Source: a virus
Virus record (IMG/VR): IMGVR_UViG_3300013006_002412
Span: 1 to 33,332 of that record
Reading direction: 5' to 3' (one strand)
Length of the DNA: 33,332 nt
A program made the translations under genes and the position numbers. How positions within the stretch are numbered: position 1 is the first letter of the stretch; each line of letters begins with the position of its first letter. This document shows, one piece after another, positions 8,700-15,241 of this stretch. The notes under the pieces are model-generated. The model ran no database searches. It had not been told where the DNA came from and worked only from the letters and a program-made list of their open reading frames with translations.

Positions 8700-9003
8700 G
8701 GATTTTCCTCGAGGGTGCGCGCGGCTCCGGCCCGGCCTACATCAATGCCCCCAGCGGCGCTGAAGGTTTCGATCGGGACAGAGCACGCGCGCTGACGCCC
8801 CGGCGGCTGTCGGGGCGATGGATTGCGGTGAAATTGGGATGACCGGAGCCCGCTAAGGGGAACTTTCCGTAATGGCTATATCCATGATTGTTCGTGGCAC
8901 TGTCAATCGGGCAACGGAGATATTTCCGCGCGGGCCACAATGTGTAAGCCGGCGCCTAACATTTCCCTTGCAATGTGTAAGGCATTGCATTACACAAATT
9001 CGC
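8700..9003. promoter_or_regulatory. 304-bp divergent intergenic region between late operon and accessory block
   Basis: No gene is supported here. The left part precedes terS on the minus strand and should carry the late promoter, but I see no sigma70-like -35/-10 pair, which would fit an activator-dependent promoter. A 6-bp-arm GC hairpin lies at 8797-8816. The right end (8938-9003) holds the higBA operator-promoter, annotated separately. The packaging (cos or pac) site could also lie here or within terS, but nothing in the sequence identifies it. Confidence 0.5.
8938..8996 (+). promoter_or_regulatory. higBA promoter with overlapping operator
   Basis: A -35 TTGCAA (8968-8973) and -10 TACACA (8991-8996) are separated by exactly 17 bp. 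The inverted repeat TGTGTAA (8974-8980) / TTACACA (8990-8996) fills the spacer and covers the -10. The 11-mer CAATGTGTAAG occurs at 8938-8948 and again at 8971-8981, 33 bp or about three helical turns apart. This is the expected layout for autorepression by a HigA-type antitoxin. The predicted transcription start falls at or next to the toxin ATG (9004), and there is no Shine-Dalgarno, so the transcript may be leaderless. Confidence 0.65.
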
Positions 9004-9279
9004 ATGATCAAGTCCTACCGCAGCAAAGCCGTGAAGATCTTCTTCGAGACCGGGGACGGCTCAAAGCTGCCTGTGCCCAATCACGATCGCGTGCGTCGCC
9101 AGCTCATCACGCTCGACGAGGCGACGGTGGCAGAGGACATGAACATTCCGGGTTGGCGCTTCCACGGGCTCAAAGGCAAGCCCAAGCGCTACGCTGTGGA
9201 CGCGAGCGGCAACTACCGCCTGACATTCGGTTTCGACGGTCAGGATGCTGTCGCGGTCGATCTGGAGGATTACCACTAA
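9004..9279 (+). CDS. higB: HigB/GraT-family toxin (RelE/ParE fold)
   Basis: A 91-residue toxin of the HigB group, expected to act as a ribosome-dependent mRNA endonuclease. The N-terminus 'MIKSYRSKAVKIFFETGDGSKLP' and the C-terminus 'PKRYAVDASGNYRLTFGFDGQDAVAVDLEDYH' are close to the family pattern (I.sF..k.l..fFe ... W.i.V.gnwRitF.f...da..Vd..DYH). I chose this start because the frame extends upstream but homologues begin at MIKS; the upstream residues have no family resemblance and cover the promoter. The antitoxin follows 23 bp later, in the toxin-first order typical of HigBA. Confidence 0.93.
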   Translation: MIKSYRSKAVKIFFETGDGSKLPVPNHDRVRRQLITLDEATVAEDMNIPGWRFHGLKGKPKRYAVDASGNYRLTFGFDGQDAVAVDLEDYH

Positions 9280-9302
9280 CTGCGACCATGGAGGGTCAGG
9301 TT

Positions 9303-9605
9303 ATGACTATCAAGAATGGGCTTCGGCCCTTGCACCCGGGCGAGCTGCTCCGCGAGGACGTCTTACCCGCGCTCGACAAGCCCAAGGCGGAAATCGCGCG
9401 CGCTCTCGGCGTGTCGCGGCACACGCTGTACGAGCTGCTCGCCGAGCGTCAGCCGGTCACGCCGCAGATGGCCCATCGCCTGGGCAAGCTGTGCGGGAAC
9501 GGTGCGGAGATTTGGGGCAGGCTGCAGCTTCGCTATGATCTCGCGATCGCCGGCGATGCGATGCGGGAGGAACTCGACAAGATCCCGACGCTCGAGGCGG
9601 CATAG
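9303..9605 (+). CDS. higA: HigA-family antitoxin (XRE-type HTH)
   Basis: A 100-residue antitoxin with the family opening 'LRPLHPGELLREDVLPAL' and a Cro/CI-type HTH (KAEIARALGVSRHTLYELL). It continues with 'RQPVTPQMAHRLGKLCGNGAEIWGRLQLRYDLAIA', typical of the HigA/VapI-like group. It binds and inhibits HigB and represses the shared promoter, probably through the palindrome at 8974-8996. A GGAGGG Shine-Dalgarno lies 7-8 bp before the ATG, much stronger than the toxin's start, which would favour antitoxin excess. Confidence 0.93.
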   Translation: MTIKNGLRPLHPGELLREDVLPALDKPKAEIARALGVSRHTLYELLAERQPVTPQMAHRLGKLCGNGAEIWGRLQLRYDLAIAGDAMREELDKIPTLEAA

Positions 9606-9749: not shown

Positions 9750-11291
9750 ATGTCATACGAACACGGCGGCATCTTCGCCGCCCAGGACGATTCCGCCCCC
9801 GAGGGGCAGGCCCTCGCCACGCTCGCCAACATCAAGGACTTCACCGACGGGCGCGATCGCGCCATCGAGTTGTGGCTGGAGAGCTATGACCATTTCCACA
9901 CACACGCCGCGCTCGCCGCGGCCGCCAGCGTAGGCGGCAACATCAGCCTGGCGATCGGCAGCGACCGCAACAACGACATCTCCCTGTCGGCCGCGTTCAT
10001 GGCCACCGGCACCTCGAAATATTGGGACCAGGGCAGACAGCTCGATCGAGATGCCCGCGAGCATTTCACGGCGCTGGTCACCGCGACGGTGGACCGCGGC
10101 TGCTGGACGCACCTGATGTCGCACCTCGGTTTCGACGTGCTGCTCGATCGGCAGGCGCGCGAGGAATTCCGCGACAGCATCAAGGACACGCCGCCGCCTT
10201 TCACCGTCGAGAACTGCCAGGCGACGTTCGGCTCGGTCTGGCTCAGTCGGCGCGACATGTACCTCCGCGGCATCGCCAACACCTTCATGGCGATGGACCG
10301 ACGGTTCCGTTCGCACGATGCCTTCGCGATCGGCAACCGGCTGGTGATCGACCGCGCGTTCGGAATCGATAGCTCGTGGTGGGTCAGCGACAACCGCCGC
10401 GACACCCTGCACGATGTCGAGCGCATCTTCCGGGAGCTTGACGGAAAGGGCCCAATCCCGATGTCCTATGGGATCAGCCACCGGCGCGGCGAGCCCGTGC
10501 CGCCCGAAGAGGTCGAAGGCATCGTCGGCAAGGTGGTCCAGGCCCGGCAGGACCGCGTGTTCCCCATGCTGGTGCGCAACGAATATTTCCGGGTGCGCGT
10601 CTTCCAGAACGGCAACCTGCACCTGTGGTTCGAGCGGAAGGATTTGCTCAAGCAGGTCAACGAGCTGCTGCTCGAATATTACAAGCCGGTCGAGGGCGAC
10701 GTGGGGCAGGGGCCGACCTACGAGCGAGGCCCCGCCTATCACGCGACGCCGGCGAAGAACTTCGGCGAATTCTTTTCTTCCGATGCGGTCGCGGCCGCGG
10801 TCATGGACCGCGCGGAGATTGCCGCCGGGCATCGCGTGCTGGAGCCTTCCGCCGGCGCCGGCACCCTGGCCAAGGCAGCGCGCGCGGCCGGCGCCTCGGT
10901 GCAATGCGTGGAGATCCAGCCCGGGCTCGCGCACGAGCTGCGCGTACTGCACGGCTTCCGAGACACCATCGAGGCCGACTTCCTCCAGCTCGACCCCGCT
11001 CGGGTCGGCCTGTTCGACCGCATCGTGATGAACCCGCCGTTCGATCGCGGCCGCGACTGCGACCATGTGCGCCACGCTTTCCAGTTCCTGAAGCCCGGCG
11101 GCGTGCTGGTGGCGGTGATGAGCGCACGGGCGGAACATTGCACCGACGCGCGGCACAAGCCGTTGCATGATCTGATTGACCAGTGCGGTGACCGTCCGCG
11201 CTGGGCCTGGCGCGACTTGCCAGAGAAATCGTTCGCCCACGCGGGGACGAACGTGAACACCGTGACCCTCTACCTCAGGCGGCCCCGGTGA
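9750..11291 (+). CDS. DUF4942-domain class I SAM-dependent methyltransferase
   Basis: A 513-residue, two-part protein. Residues of about 25-325 match the DUF4942-type region found next to methyltransferase domains in phages and plasmids (RDAIELW-like opening, 'WTHLMSHLGFDVLLDRQAREEF', 'TFGSVWLSRRDMYLRGIANTF'). Residues 330-510 are a Rossmann methyltransferase: motif I 'VLEPSAGAGTLAKAA' (363-377), acidic 'VEIQ' at the end of the second strand (387-390), and the amino-methyltransferase tetrapeptide NPPF (428-431). NPPF points to a target amino group, probably adenine N6 in DNA; the substrate and site are not visible. No cognate restriction enzyme is nearby, so it looks like an orphan that could protect phage DNA or mark it. 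It begins with the CCCTACCAAGGAACC leader. Confidence 0.85.
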   Translation: MSYEHGGIFAAQDDSAPEGQALATLANIKDFTDGRDRAIELWLESYDHFHTHAALAAAASVGGNISLAIGSDRNNDISLSAAFMATGTSKYWDQGRQLDRDAREHFTALVTATVDRGCWTHLMSHLGFDVLLDRQAREEFRDSIKDTPPPFTVENCQATFGSVWLSRRDMYLRGIANTFMAMDRRFRSHDAFAIGNRLVIDRAFGIDSSWWVSDNRRDTLHDVERIFRELDGKGPIPMSYGISHRRGEPVPPEEVEGIVGKVVQARQDRVFPMLVRNEYFRVRVFQNGNLHLWFERKDLLKQVNELLLEYYKPVEGDVGQGPTYERGPAYHATPAKNFGEFFSSDAVAAAVMDRAEIAAGHRVLEPSAGAGTLAKAARAAGASVQCVEIQPGLAHELRVLHGFRDTIEADFLQLDPARVGLFDRIVMNPPFDRGRDCDHVRHAFQFLKPGGVLVAVMSARAEHCTDARHKPLHDLIDQCGDRPRWAWRDLPEKSFAHAGTNVNTVTLYLRRPR

Positions 11292-12502: not shown

Positions 12503-13381
12503 TCACACGGCACACATTCCGGCCGCACATCCGCTCCAACTCAGCAGGTTCCCTTGGCGCGCGGCGATTAATGCTGCGAAGTCGATTTGATCGAGCGGCG
12601 TAAGGCTGTCGTGCAGGAAGCATTCTCCGTCGATGCCTGGCATGCCGTACCGAATGAGCTGGTCGACAGCCACCGCGACCGCAAAGTCTGCCGGCTGATG
12701 GGTCTTGATCCAAAGCCACTGCTCGTCCGAGGTGTACGGGCAGCTCTTGCATCCCGAGTGTTTCAGGCGGACGCCGTACTCGTTGAAAACCCAGTCATCG
12801 CAATCGTGGCGCTCCCAGCCGATCTCAATCAGCGGGTATCGGTTCCTGATCCACGGATGGGCGGAAGGAGCCATGCGATGCTTCTCATCGCTGGTGATCC
12901 CTATCCACATTTCGACAATCGGTTCGCGAGGCATCGGCGATCGCGGCCCATAGCCGAGCACCTCCCTCAGCTTTCGCCAGATCGGGCGGAGCTTGTAGTC
13001 CCGCGTGCATCCTCTGCCGAGGATGCCGCGCGACCCGTCGGGGTTCCTGACGAAGAACGGCGGGTTAGCCATCCGCTCGATCCAGCCGCCTACCAACTGC
13101 TCGAGATCGCCCGCAATGTGGCCGCCGTCGACCGCGTCGAACGGAATGGTCACGCCCATGTTCGGAGATCGCAGCCAGGCCATGTTCTCGGCCGACGAAG
13201 ACCGTTCATCGGCGAGCGCGGCGTCGAGGATCAAATCGGGCGTCGGCCCGATCAATCCGCGCTGCGCGAGGAGGATCATCGTAACCGATTGCAGGCCCTT
13301 GCCGTTGCTGATGCAGCGGAGACGAGGCTCTGGCAGCGGCCCCGACACAGAGGGCGGCACCAGGATGGGCAGCATCGTCAT
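12503..13381 (-). CDS. PP-loop ATPase, PAPS reductase-like, with cysteine cluster
   Basis: A 292-residue protein of the adenine-nucleotide alpha-hydrolase (PP-loop) superfamily, in a phage group usually annotated as PAPS reductase-like. The N-terminal loop is 'ISNGKGLQSVTMILLA' (residues 24-39), a variant of SGGxxSxxL. Downstream are 'GRGCTRDYKLRPIWRKLRE' (122-140), 'VEMWIGITSDEKHRM' and 'NRYPLIEIGW'. Cysteines at 125, 211, 214 and 290 (CTRDYK, SGCKSCPY, GMC) could hold an Fe-S cluster or zinc. Such enzymes activate a substrate by adenylation; the substrate here is unknown. I start at ATG 13381, which overlaps the TGA of the TGT-like gene (ATGA). This makes it the last gene of the early operon and couples it to that partner. 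Confidence 0.8.
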   Translation of the reverse strand: MTMLPILVPPSVSGPLPEPRLRCISNGKGLQSVTMILLAQRGLIGPTPDLILDAALADERSSSAENMAWLRSPNMGVTIPFDAVDGGHIAGDLEQLVGGWIERMANPPFFVRNPDGSRGILGRGCTRDYKLRPIWRKLREVLGYGPRSPMPREPIVEMWIGITSDEKHRMAPSAHPWIRNRYPLIEIGWERHDCDDWVFNEYGVRLKHSGCKSCPYTSDEQWLWIKTHQPADFAVAVAVDQLIRYGMPGIDGECFLHDSLTPLDQIDFAALIAARQGNLLSWSGCAAGMCAV

Positions 13382-14082
13382 GCCGCGAGCCTTTCGAGAC
13401 GATCCGCATAGGCCAGTCGGCCACGCCACTGATCACCGAACAGAGCATCCATCGGGGAATCGTATCGCCAGCCGTTCTGGGCCAGGGTGGTCATATCGAC
13501 GCTGGCGAATGGGTAGTCACCGCCGACCACGCCGCCGCGGAACATGTGGATCGGGTGCCACCGATTACCCATCAGGAGGGCGACCTCGTCCATTTTGCGC
13601 CGATACGCATCGCAGCCGACCGGCTCCCGCTTGGGGTCGCCGATCCATCCCAGACAGACCCGGTCGTAGCGCTCGCAGAGATAGGCGAGCCGCTCAATCC
13701 GACCGTCCATGTGCCACACTGGCGCCATCCGTGAGCGACCGAAGGGGTTTTCGAGCAGAAGCGCGTCGTTGACCTGCGACGGGGCGCCCGGGCTGTCCGG
13801 AATCACCGCCCATCGCCCTGCGTGGAAGAGCTGGGGTTCAAGCCAGGCGTAGTAGGCCCGCCACCACGCATCGCGCTGCTCCTCGTCCCATTCCCGGCCG
13901 GCGCGCAACGCGGCCATCCAGAACGAGAACGCGCCGTGGTCGAACATGATGAAAGGACACAGGCGCAGGACCTCGAGCAGGTCGTCGGGCCGGAAGAAGC
14001 TCACGCACGCCGCGCGCCCCGCCAGCACGCAGGCCAATGCCTCCCTCGGGGTGAGGGGCGTGCCGTGGAACACCAAGGCCAT
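13378..14082 (-). CDS. TGT/DpdA-like TIM-barrel protein of phages
   Basis: A 234-residue protein of a phage family usually left unnamed. Its motifs line up with tRNA-guanine transglycosylase landmarks. 'FDHGAFSFW' (47-55) resembles the TGT substrate-pocket motif DSGGF, and 'SVDMTTLAQNG' (194-204) resembles the catalytic FDCVxPTRxARNG. Between them are 'VIPDSPG' (93-99), 'PVWHMDGRIERLAYLCERYDRVCLGWIG' (121-148) and 'IHMFRGG'. Similarity to TGT and the DNA-modifying DpdA group is my inference from motif order. If correct it would exchange a base in DNA or RNA. It is shorter than bacterial TGT (about 370) and lacks the zinc-binding C-terminus. It overlaps the PP-loop gene by ATGA and the upstream small gene by one base. 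Confidence 0.7.
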   Translation of the reverse strand: MALVFHGTPLTPREALACVLAGRAACVSFFRPDDLLEVLRLCPFIMFDHGAFSFWMAALRAGREWDEEQRDAWWRAYYAWLEPQLFHAGRWAVIPDSPGAPSQVNDALLLENPFGRSRMAPVWHMDGRIERLAYLCERYDRVCLGWIGDPKREPVGCDAYRRKMDEVALLMGNRWHPIHMFRGGVVGGDYPFASVDMTTLAQNGWRYDSPMDALFGDQWRGRLAYADRLERLAA

Positions 14083-14360
14083 CAGTTCACCGCAGCACCG
14101 AAGTCAGCCACGGCGATCGCCCACATGTGCCCGCGCGGGTCGGGACCGGCCACGCAAGCGGTGGTCTCGGCCCAGTCCTCGGTCTCGTCGCCGAACCGAT
14201 CGAAGCGGTTGACGATGGGGAAGCGGGCGCCGTCGCTGTCCACCACCTCCATGCCGGCGCGGTTGATGGCGACAATGTCCCGCCCATCGATGCGCTCCGT
14301 GGGGCTCGAGTCGACATTGGGGCGACTGGACGGCGACGTGCCGGGGCGGCGAATATCCAT
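14082..14360 (-). CDS. Small hypothetical protein upstream of TGT-like gene
   Basis: A 92-residue protein from ATG 14360 (a GTG one codon earlier is also possible). 'RIDGRDIVAINRAGMEVVDSDGARFPIVNRFDRFGDETEDWAETTACVAGPDPRGHMWAIAVADF' looks like a small beta-rich domain. I recognise no family. It is embedded in a run of overlapping genes: its start overlaps the stop of the HTH protein and its stop overlaps the TGT-like start (TGATG), so it is translated as part of the operon. Confidence 0.7.
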   Translation of the reverse strand: MDIRRPGTSPSSRPNVDSSPTERIDGRDIVAINRAGMEVVDSDGARFPIVNRFDRFGDETEDWAETTACVAGPDPRGHMWAIAVADFGAAVN

Positions 14361-15241
14361 CACGCAGCCTCGTCTTCGCTGAGCGTCGGCGGCGCCGGCT
14401 TCGGCCTGGGGGCCAGCAATGTCCCTTCACCGAGGCGCTCGTATGCTTCTCCGACATCGGCGCGGCCGACCGAGGCGCGCGCGAAATCCTTGAACTCAGG
14501 CCACATGCGCAAGGCGGTGATCAACCGCTTCCGCGCGGTGCGCCAATGCATCCCGTATTCGGCGGCGAGGCGGACATAGGGGACGTTGGTCGTCACCATG
14601 TCGATGATCATGCGGCGCGGCTGCGGCACGCACTTGCGCCACGCCCGATAGGCGAGCTCGAGGCGGATGCGGCCGAGCGATTCGACGAGCTGATCCCGGG
14701 CCGAGCCCGAGCAGTCGACGCGGACCAGCATCTCGGAGAGGATAGCGAACGAGCCGGTGCCCATGGACACGTCGCGTTCGATCATCTCCACCACCATCGC
14801 GATTTCTTCGGCCGCGGCGAGCTCCTCGGCCGTGATCTTTCCGAGCGCATGCATGCGGTGGATGGCCGAGTGCCCGAACCTGCTGACGCGATCGGGTGCC
14901 TGGCTGAACTTCTCGTGCGTCTCGGGCGTGCCCTCCCACTTGTGGCTCCAGCGCTCCTGGGCGGTGGCGCGGGCCATCTCGGCCTCTGCCTCGCGCAGGG
15001 CTGCGGCATGGCGCCGGCTCATCACCGCGGCGACGTCCTCAATGCTGCGATTGCCCGGGCCGGGCTTGGCCTTCGGTCCTGCGGGTTCGGGCGCCGGCGG
15101 GCCGACGCGGCGAGCGGGCAGGCGCGGGGCTTTTGCGGCCAGCACCTCCCCGGTGATGGCCTCGGCCCGCTTCTTGGCGGCGCGGCGCGCTTGGGGGCTC
15201 GGCTTGCGCGTCCGGGATTTCTGCCCCCCTTTGATCGTCAT
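14360..15241 (-). CDS. Helix-turn-helix protein, candidate late-gene or sigma-like regulator
   Basis: A 293-residue protein from ATG 15241, preceded by GGAAG and overlapping the upstream stop (ATGA); the longer frame upstream is a shadow. The N-terminus is very basic (KSRTRKPSPQARRAAKKRAE), followed by a Pro/Ala linker. The C-terminal half has a helical domain ending in 'MVTTNVPYVRLAAEYGMHWRTARKRLITALRMWPEF', which reads like a sigma region 4 or LuxR-type HTH. It is encoded late in the early operon, a usual position for an activator of late genes, and the late operon lacks an obvious sigma70 promoter. The role is inferred; the HTH is seen. Confidence 0.65.
   Translation of the reverse strand: MTIKGGQKSRTRKPSPQARRAAKKRAEAITGEVLAAKAPRLPARRVGPPAPEPAGPKAKPGPGNRSIEDVAAVMSRRHAAALREAEAEMARATAQERWSHKWEGTPETHEKFSQAPDRVSRFGHSAIHRMHALGKITAEELAAAEEIAMVVEMIERDVSMGTGSFAILSEMLVRVDCSGSARDQLVESLGRIRLELAYRAWRKCVPQPRRMIIDMVTTNVPYVRLAAEYGMHWRTARKRLITALRMWPEFKDFARASVGRADVGEAYERLGEGTLLAPRPKPAPPTLSEDEAA

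What the first reader, a model, noticed from the sequence alone, without database searches (positions are those of the whole stretch)
12503..14082. TGT/DpdA-like protein overlapping a cysteine-cluster PP-loop ATPase: candidate base-modification cassette
The protein at 13378-14082 carries FDHGAFSFW and SVDMTTLAQNG in the order and spacing of the TGT motifs DSGGF and FDCVxPTRxARNG. The next gene, sharing an ATGA overlap, is a PP-loop ATPase with Cys125/211/214/290. In known 7-deazaguanine DNA systems (DpdA with QueC-type PP-loop enzymes), a transglycosylase inserts a base made or altered by such enzymes. Here no queC/D/E/F or folE is visible, so the base would be imported, host-made, or different. 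The pair could modify phage DNA, or host tRNA, late in the early phase. Both families are widespread in phages but functionally unassigned as far as I know.
Basis: partly seen in the sequence, partly recalled or inferred. Interest (0 to 1): 0.78.

Follow-up and report, generated by a model that had tools for sequence, protein, structure and literature searches.

The report
Phage DNA guanine-swapping enzyme (DpdA)
The first gene is a short version of a known phage enzyme that swaps guanine in DNA for a modified base, its neighbour is an unrelated sulfur-type enzyme rather than a partner, and close relatives of the first gene appear to need the ribosome to skip one base to be made at all.

Summary
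14082-13378(-) encodes a TGT/DpdA-like protein; 13381-12503(-), overlapping by ATGA, encodes a PP-loop protein with clustered cysteines. The first is a short DpdA (PHROG 887, the family of phage 9g DpdA). It keeps the paired Asp residues and the His196 equivalent, and models as a TIM barrel. It belongs with the published 'singleton DpdA' phages such as Salmonella phage 7-11. Among 145 relatives, 73 carry a 7-deazaguanine supply gene (YhhQ-type transporter, or QueD-like and/or QueE) within 630 bp on the same strand. Transporter and synthesis genes never occur together. The window has neither, but six of six related Sphingomonadales genomes encode QueC.

The PP-loop protein is SspD/CysH-like, not QueC-like. 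The pair is not a conserved cassette (3-6 of 145 loci against 1 of 92 controls); I read the neighbour as separate cargo.

Unexpected: about 22 relatives in the window's own clade need exactly one +1 frameshift, always at UUU_C (13 at AUG_UUU_CGA), just before a catalytic Asp in all but one gene, with dN/dS about 0.19 on both sides. I infer programmed +1 frameshifting, ancestral to the clade and lost in the window copy. Activity of the window copy is uncertain: Met197 is unique in the family.

The parts
13378..14082 (-). Short DpdA (DNA guanine transglycosylase homologue), 234 aa
   Evidence: PHROG 887 E 4e-26; hhalign to phage 9g DpdA prob 95.8, E 8e-9; AF2 pLDDT 85, pTM 0.83; BFVD matches to annotated queuine tRNA-ribosyltransferases
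13939..13941 (-). codon of D48, first catalytic Asp (DxGAF motif; 9g D72)
   Evidence: 135/135 conserved; aligned with 9g
13942..13947 (-). ATG TTC (M46-F47) in frame, at the place where close relatives read ATG TTT CGA and need a +1 slip
13795..13797 (-). codon of D96 (IPD; 9g D114)
   Evidence: 135/135 conserved
13711..13713 (-). codon of H124 (PVWH; 9g H141)
   Evidence: 135/135 conserved
13546..13548 (-). codon of H179, equivalent of the diagnostic His196 of 9g DpdA
   Evidence: 134/135 conserved; alignment; PMC6884629
13495..13497 (-). codon of D196, second catalytic Asp (SxD; 9g D215)
   Evidence: 132/135 conserved
13492..13494 (-). codon of M197, found only in the window copy; Ser in 132 of 135
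13378..13381 (-). ATGA stop/start overlap of the two genes
12503..13381 (-). SspD/CysH-like PP-loop protein, 292 aa, probably Fe-S binding
   Evidence: PHROG 424 E 1e-24; SspD profile E 5e-8, and 25/25 family members match; fold like LarE, TtuA, NcsA, CysH
14085..14363 (-). 93-aa ORF abutting dpdA upstream; no family match; sits where some relatives have a QueD-like gene
   Evidence: contrast L022

Best explanation
The gene at 14082-13378 is a short, singleton-type phage DpdA. It probably exchanges guanine in phage DNA for a host-made 7-deazaguanine (preQ0 or a derivative), which hides the DNA from restriction. The overlapping gene encodes an SspD/CysH-type PP-loop protein that travels independently and is most likely a second, separate DNA-modification or counter-defence cargo gene. 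Shown here: family, fold class, catalytic residues, family-wide linkage to 7-deazaguanine supply genes, and lack of conserved pairing. Inferred: DNA as substrate, identity of the base, anti-restriction role, and role of the neighbour. In close relatives expression of this enzyme appears to depend on +1 frameshifting at UUU_C; the window copy has lost that requirement.
For: PHROG 887 is shared with 9g DpdA. hhalign to 9g DpdA gives probability 95.8 with D48/D72, D96/D114, H124/H141, H179/H196 and D196/D215 aligned. Residue conservation in 135 relatives. TIM-barrel model with BFVD matches named queuine tRNA-ribosyltransferase. 73 of 145 relatives have a Vut_1/YhhQ, QueD-like or QueE gene within 630 bp, all on the same strand, and 0 have both a transporter and a synthesis gene; controls are 0 of 80 and 1 of 92; Fisher p 1.6e-12 for Vut_1 and 5e-5 for QueD-like. 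QueC and a canonical TGT in 6 of 6 related hosts. Salmonella phage 7-11, with a 37% identical gene, had dADG in its DNA (PMC6884629). Neighbour: SspD in 25/25 members; no significant enrichment beside dpdA.
Against: The 7-11 modification was only about 0.02% of G, so singleton DpdAs may be weakly active. The window copy has N49H and S197M at positions 98% conserved. Foldseek against PDB gave TIM barrels but nothing below 1e-3 and no TGT on top. hhalign to a canonical host TGT fails. No supply gene lies in the window. The ATGA overlap and one other adjacent case (L062) leave room for a functional link with the neighbour.
Confidence: 0.66

Rival explanations
1. The two genes are one base-modification cassette: the PP-loop protein makes or alters (for example thiolates or amidates) a 7-deazaguanine that DpdA inserts.
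For: ATGA overlap; L062 has PAPS-like, DpdA and YhhQ-type genes in a row; L195 and L272 have a PF01507-type protein beside DpdA.
Against: Strong family members in only 3 of 145 DpdA loci, all PAPS types in 6 of 145, against 1 of 92 controls (p 1.0 and 0.25); DpdA in 0 of 80 PAPS loci and 0 of 35 whole PAPS records; PAPS-like in 1 of 50 whole DpdA records. The hits on the tree are scattered singletons. Close relatives L002 and L003 lack it. No QueC match.
Confidence: 0.12
2. The window DpdA no longer exchanges bases; it is decaying or acts only as a DNA-binding or base-excising protein.
For: Unique M197 and rare H49 beside the catalytic Asp residues; trace modification only in phage 7-11 (PMC6884629).
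Against: All five key residues kept, ORF intact, well-folded model.
Confidence: 0.14
3. The enzyme acts on host tRNA rather than on DNA.
For: TGT superfamily; profile named queuine tRNA-ribosyltransferase.
Against: Groups with phage DpdA; lacks the CxCxxC...H zinc site seen in the host TGT (sequences); hosts already have their own TGT.
Confidence: 0.08

Closest known systems
Singleton phage DpdA, e.g. Salmonella phage 7-11 gp032 (Hutinet 2019, PMC6884629)
   Same: Same PHROG 887, 37% identity, same length class, no synthesis genes in the window
   Different: Window copy has H49 and M197 and an overlapping SspD-like gene; it lies in a Sphingomonadales clade in which many genes need a +1 frameshift
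Enterobacteria phage 9g DpdA (DpdA1)
   Same: Same PHROG; the five key residues align, His196 equivalent included
   Different: 83 residues longer, and flanked by folE, queD, queC, queE
SspD / DndC / CysH PP-loop proteins
   Same: 25/25 family members match the SspD profile; PP-loop fold; clustered Cys
   Different: No other Ssp or Dnd genes recognised next to it; ADTG motif replaced in the window copy
Influenza A PA-X +1 frameshift site UCC_UUU_CGU (PMC3498833)
   Same: UUU_CGN with +1 slip to UUC in the relatives of the window gene
   Different: Bacteriophage gene; the slip yields the full enzyme rather than a truncated one; the window copy itself lacks it

Membership tests
Phage DpdA (DpdA1-related) | Sequence membership with characterised DpdA | tested here: met
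   PHROG 887 for both the window protein and 9g DpdA; hhalign prob 95.8
Phage DpdA (DpdA1-related) | Catalytic Asp pair and conserved His196, which DpdA2 lacks | tested here: met
   D48, D196, H179; His196 criterion from PMC6884629
Phage DpdA (DpdA1-related) | TIM-barrel fold | tested here: met
   AF2 model and Foldseek; TGT itself was not the top PDB match
Phage DpdA (DpdA1-related) | 7-deazaguanine supply genes nearby | tested here: inconclusive
   Family: 73 of 145; window: none in 33 kb, but the record may be a fragment
Phage DpdA (DpdA1-related) | Inserts 7-deazaguanine in DNA | not testable with these tools
   needs LC-MS of nucleosides
Canonical tRNA TGT (PF01702) | Pfam TGT match and CxCxxC...H zinc site | tested here: not met
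   No Pfam TGT match in 66 members; zinc motif present in host TGT, absent in the window protein
QueC (PF06508) | Pfam match of the PP-loop protein | tested here: not met
   no QueC match for P0002 or any of 25 relatives
SspD/CysH-type PP-loop | Profile match and PP-loop fold | tested here: met
SspABCD phosphorothioation system | SspA, SspB and SspC partners | not tested
   no dedicated search was made; none recognised among the window genes examined
DpdA/PP-loop cassette | Conserved co-occurrence | tested here: not met
Programmed +1 frameshift (clade relatives) | Same shift direction and site type across diverged genes, purifying selection on both sides | tested here: met
Programmed +1 frameshift (clade relatives) | Shifted protein product observed | not testable with these tools
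   needs reporter assay or mass spectrometry of the junction peptide
Programmed +1 frameshift (window gene) | Needs a shift to be read through | tested here: not met
   window ORF is in frame: ATG TTC GAC

The most novel reading that the evidence does not exclude
In the window's own clade of phage DpdA genes, expression depends on a programmed +1 ribosomal frameshift at UUU_C (mostly AUG_UUU_CGA), placed in most genes just before a catalytic aspartate codon. The requirement is ancestral, the site has moved within the gene while staying single, and three lineages including the window escaped it. This would be a phage/bacterial counterpart of the influenza PA-X site and a new way to meter DNA modification.
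Probability: 0.82. Interest if true: 0.86.

Novelty: new variant of a known kind. Interest (0 to 1): 0.68.

Why it matters
Hutinet et al. left open whether singleton phage DpdAs are real base-exchange enzymes and where the base comes from, and saw no correlation between YhhQ and any phage group. In this subfamily half of the loci carry either an importer or a synthesis gene and never both, which makes a supply model directly testable. If confirmed, the recurrent UUU_C frameshift would show translational metering of a DNA-modifying enzyme and a natural +1 shift class predicted in 2012. It also means that ORF-based annotation misses or truncates these genes.

Tried and rejected
Single-sequence PDB searches of both proteins found nothing. 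A profile search of PDB for DpdA gave only chance hits. Pfam and NCBIfam are silent on DpdA. A first PAPS alignment was too diverse to scan with. A first DnaB control scan returned only 12 loci and was widened to 92 loci in all. The PDB chain 'PptA' matched weakly and its function could not be established. Sequencing error as the cause of the frameshifts was rejected: the same extra T occurs in 13 genes of 54-78% identity and in isolate genomes. Pseudogenes were rejected by dN/dS about 0.19 after the shift and by the absence of further lesions (one gene, L035, excepted). A downstream RNA structure stimulating the shift was looked for and not found.

Full report
Observation. The window is a 33,332-base virus record. 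On the minus strand, 14082-13378 encodes 234 aa and 13381-12503 encodes 292 aa, and the two overlap as ATGA. The described motifs are present.

First protein. It matches only PHROG 887 (E 4e-26), the PHROG that also holds phage 9g DpdA (E 2e-98) and Salmonella phage 7-11 gp032 (E 7e-74). Profile alignment to 9g DpdA (probability 95.8, E 8e-9) pairs D48/D72, D96/D114, H124/H141, H179/H196 and D196/D215. Hutinet et al. (PMC6884629) use His196 to separate DpdA from DpdA2. In 135 distinct relatives D48, D96 and H124 are invariant, H179 occurs in 134 and D196 in 132. The AlphaFold2 model (pLDDT 85, pTM 0.83) resembles TIM barrels in PDB, without a significant TGT hit, and viral queuine tRNA-ribosyltransferases in BFVD. 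It is too distant from canonical TGT for hhalign, has no Pfam TGT match, and lacks the zinc motif seen in the host TGT (sequences). I file it as a short DpdA. The window copy departs at N49 (His; 132 of 135 have Asn) and at S197 (Met, unique), so its activity is not assured.

Base supply. I collected 145 distinct relatives from phages, IMG/VR and bacterial genomes and searched their flanks. Within 630 bp and always on the same strand, 48 loci have a Vut_1 (PF02592, YhhQ-type preQ0 transporter) gene, 24 a QueD-like gene and 10 a QueE gene; 73 have at least one, and none has both a transporter and QueD or QueE. Representative neighbours were checked with Pfam. Controls: none of 80 PAPS-family loci has Vut_1 or QueD-like; of 92 loci centred on a phage DnaB, 0 have Vut_1 and 1 has QueD-like. 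Fisher p is 1.6e-12 and 5e-5, and absence of overlap has p 2e-5. These tests ignore shared ancestry, but the tree needs at least 12 and 10 changes on supported branches, so the associations are recurrent. The phylogenetic test of mutual exclusion alone lacks power (median p 0.25). The window has none of these genes. All six related Sphingomonadales genomes encode QueC and a canonical TGT, so a host-made base is plausible.

Second protein. It matches PHROG 424 (PAPS reductase) and PADLOC SspD (E 5e-8), as do 25 of 25 family members. Eight of 25 match PF01507 and none matches QueC. The model (pLDDT 87.9) resembles [4Fe-4S] LarE, NcsA and TtuA, and CysH. Six cysteines are near-invariant. In the window copy the family's ADTG motif is replaced. 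Its function is unknown; a sulfur-transfer or redox role with a Fe-S cluster is inference.

Are they a pair? Strong family members occur in 3 of 145 DpdA loci (L062, L202, L213), other PAPS-type proteins in three more (L054, L195, L272), against 1 of 92 controls. Whole-record searches give 1 of 50 DpdA records with the PAPS family and 0 of 35 PAPS records with DpdA. The close relatives L002 and L003 lack it. In two Vibrio phages with flanks of 92-96% identity, D105 and 434O48-1, one carries DpdA and the other the SspD-like gene in the same short cargo block. This fits interchangeable cargo better than a cassette. L062, with SspD-like, DpdA and YhhQ-type genes in a row, is the best case for a link.

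Frameshift. Some relatives in the window's clade had broken ORFs: 8 of the 9 broken loci among 188 fell in this clade. A frameshift-aware alignment showed that each of these genes needs exactly one +1 shift (one, L035, also had an in-frame stop in the alignment and no exact slip site was found for it), always at UUU_C: 13 at AUG_UUU_CGA (before D48), 8 or 9 at Pro_UUU_C (before D196) and one at CCC_UUU_CUA. L033, L404 and L405 are near-identical, so independent lineages are somewhat fewer. The 13 site-A genes are 54-78% identical, with median dS 1.64 and dN/dS 0.19 both before and after the shift. Isolate genomes are included (L187 Sphingobium sp. TCM1, L188 Rhizorhapis suberifaciens). The tree makes the frameshift ancestral in the clade by parsimony, with three losses: a crown group of 18 (mostly Tyr at position 47), L391, and the window, which is the only in-frame copy in a supported set of seven. 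The site type resembles influenza PA-X UCC_UUU_CGU, and Firth et al. (PMC3498833) predicted a UUU_C class. In the part of the 2016 recoding review that is held (PMC5009743) the phage +1 sites found were at CCC, and my term search met no UUU_C phage case. No downstream structure was seen. Programmed frameshifting is inferred from sequence; no translation product has been seen. A split two-protein arrangement is unlikely, since at site B the second part would be only about 40 residues.

Verdict. Observation confirmed, interpretation partly supported: a DpdA homologue yes, a DpdA/PP-loop cassette no. The most novel outcome lies in the relatives, and the window bears on it as an apparent escape from the frameshift.

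Noticed in passing
L002, L003/L188, L028, L030-L033, L187, L392, L395-L405, L408, L411 (dpdA genes of the window's clade): About 22 dpdA genes need a single +1 frameshift at UUU_C (AUG_UUU_CGA, CCG/CCC_UUU_C, CCC_UUU_CUA), just before a catalytic Asp codon in all but one gene, with purifying selection on both sides.
   Followed up: yes
L005, L022, L027, L048, L065, L068, L069, L082, L084, L090, L098 (beside dpdA): The QueD-like neighbours keep HGH but lack the Cys four residues before it that 9g QueD has (KCRHLHGH), so they may not be standard QueD enzymes.
   Followed up: partly
L011 3545-4968 and L020 3217-5117: Near-identical Vibrio phages carry either dpdA or the SspD-like gene in the same cargo block.
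   Followed up: yes
L163 8668-10804: Three PAPS/SspD-like ORFs in tandem.
   Followed up: no
window 8995-9605 (+): HigB-like toxin gene (PF05015) followed by an HTH (HigA-like) gene, on the opposite strand to the surrounding phage genes.
   Followed up: no
window 9750-11291 (+): Gene with a DUF4942 domain (E 9e-45) and a C-terminal methyltransferase domain, possibly another DNA-modification gene.
   Followed up: no
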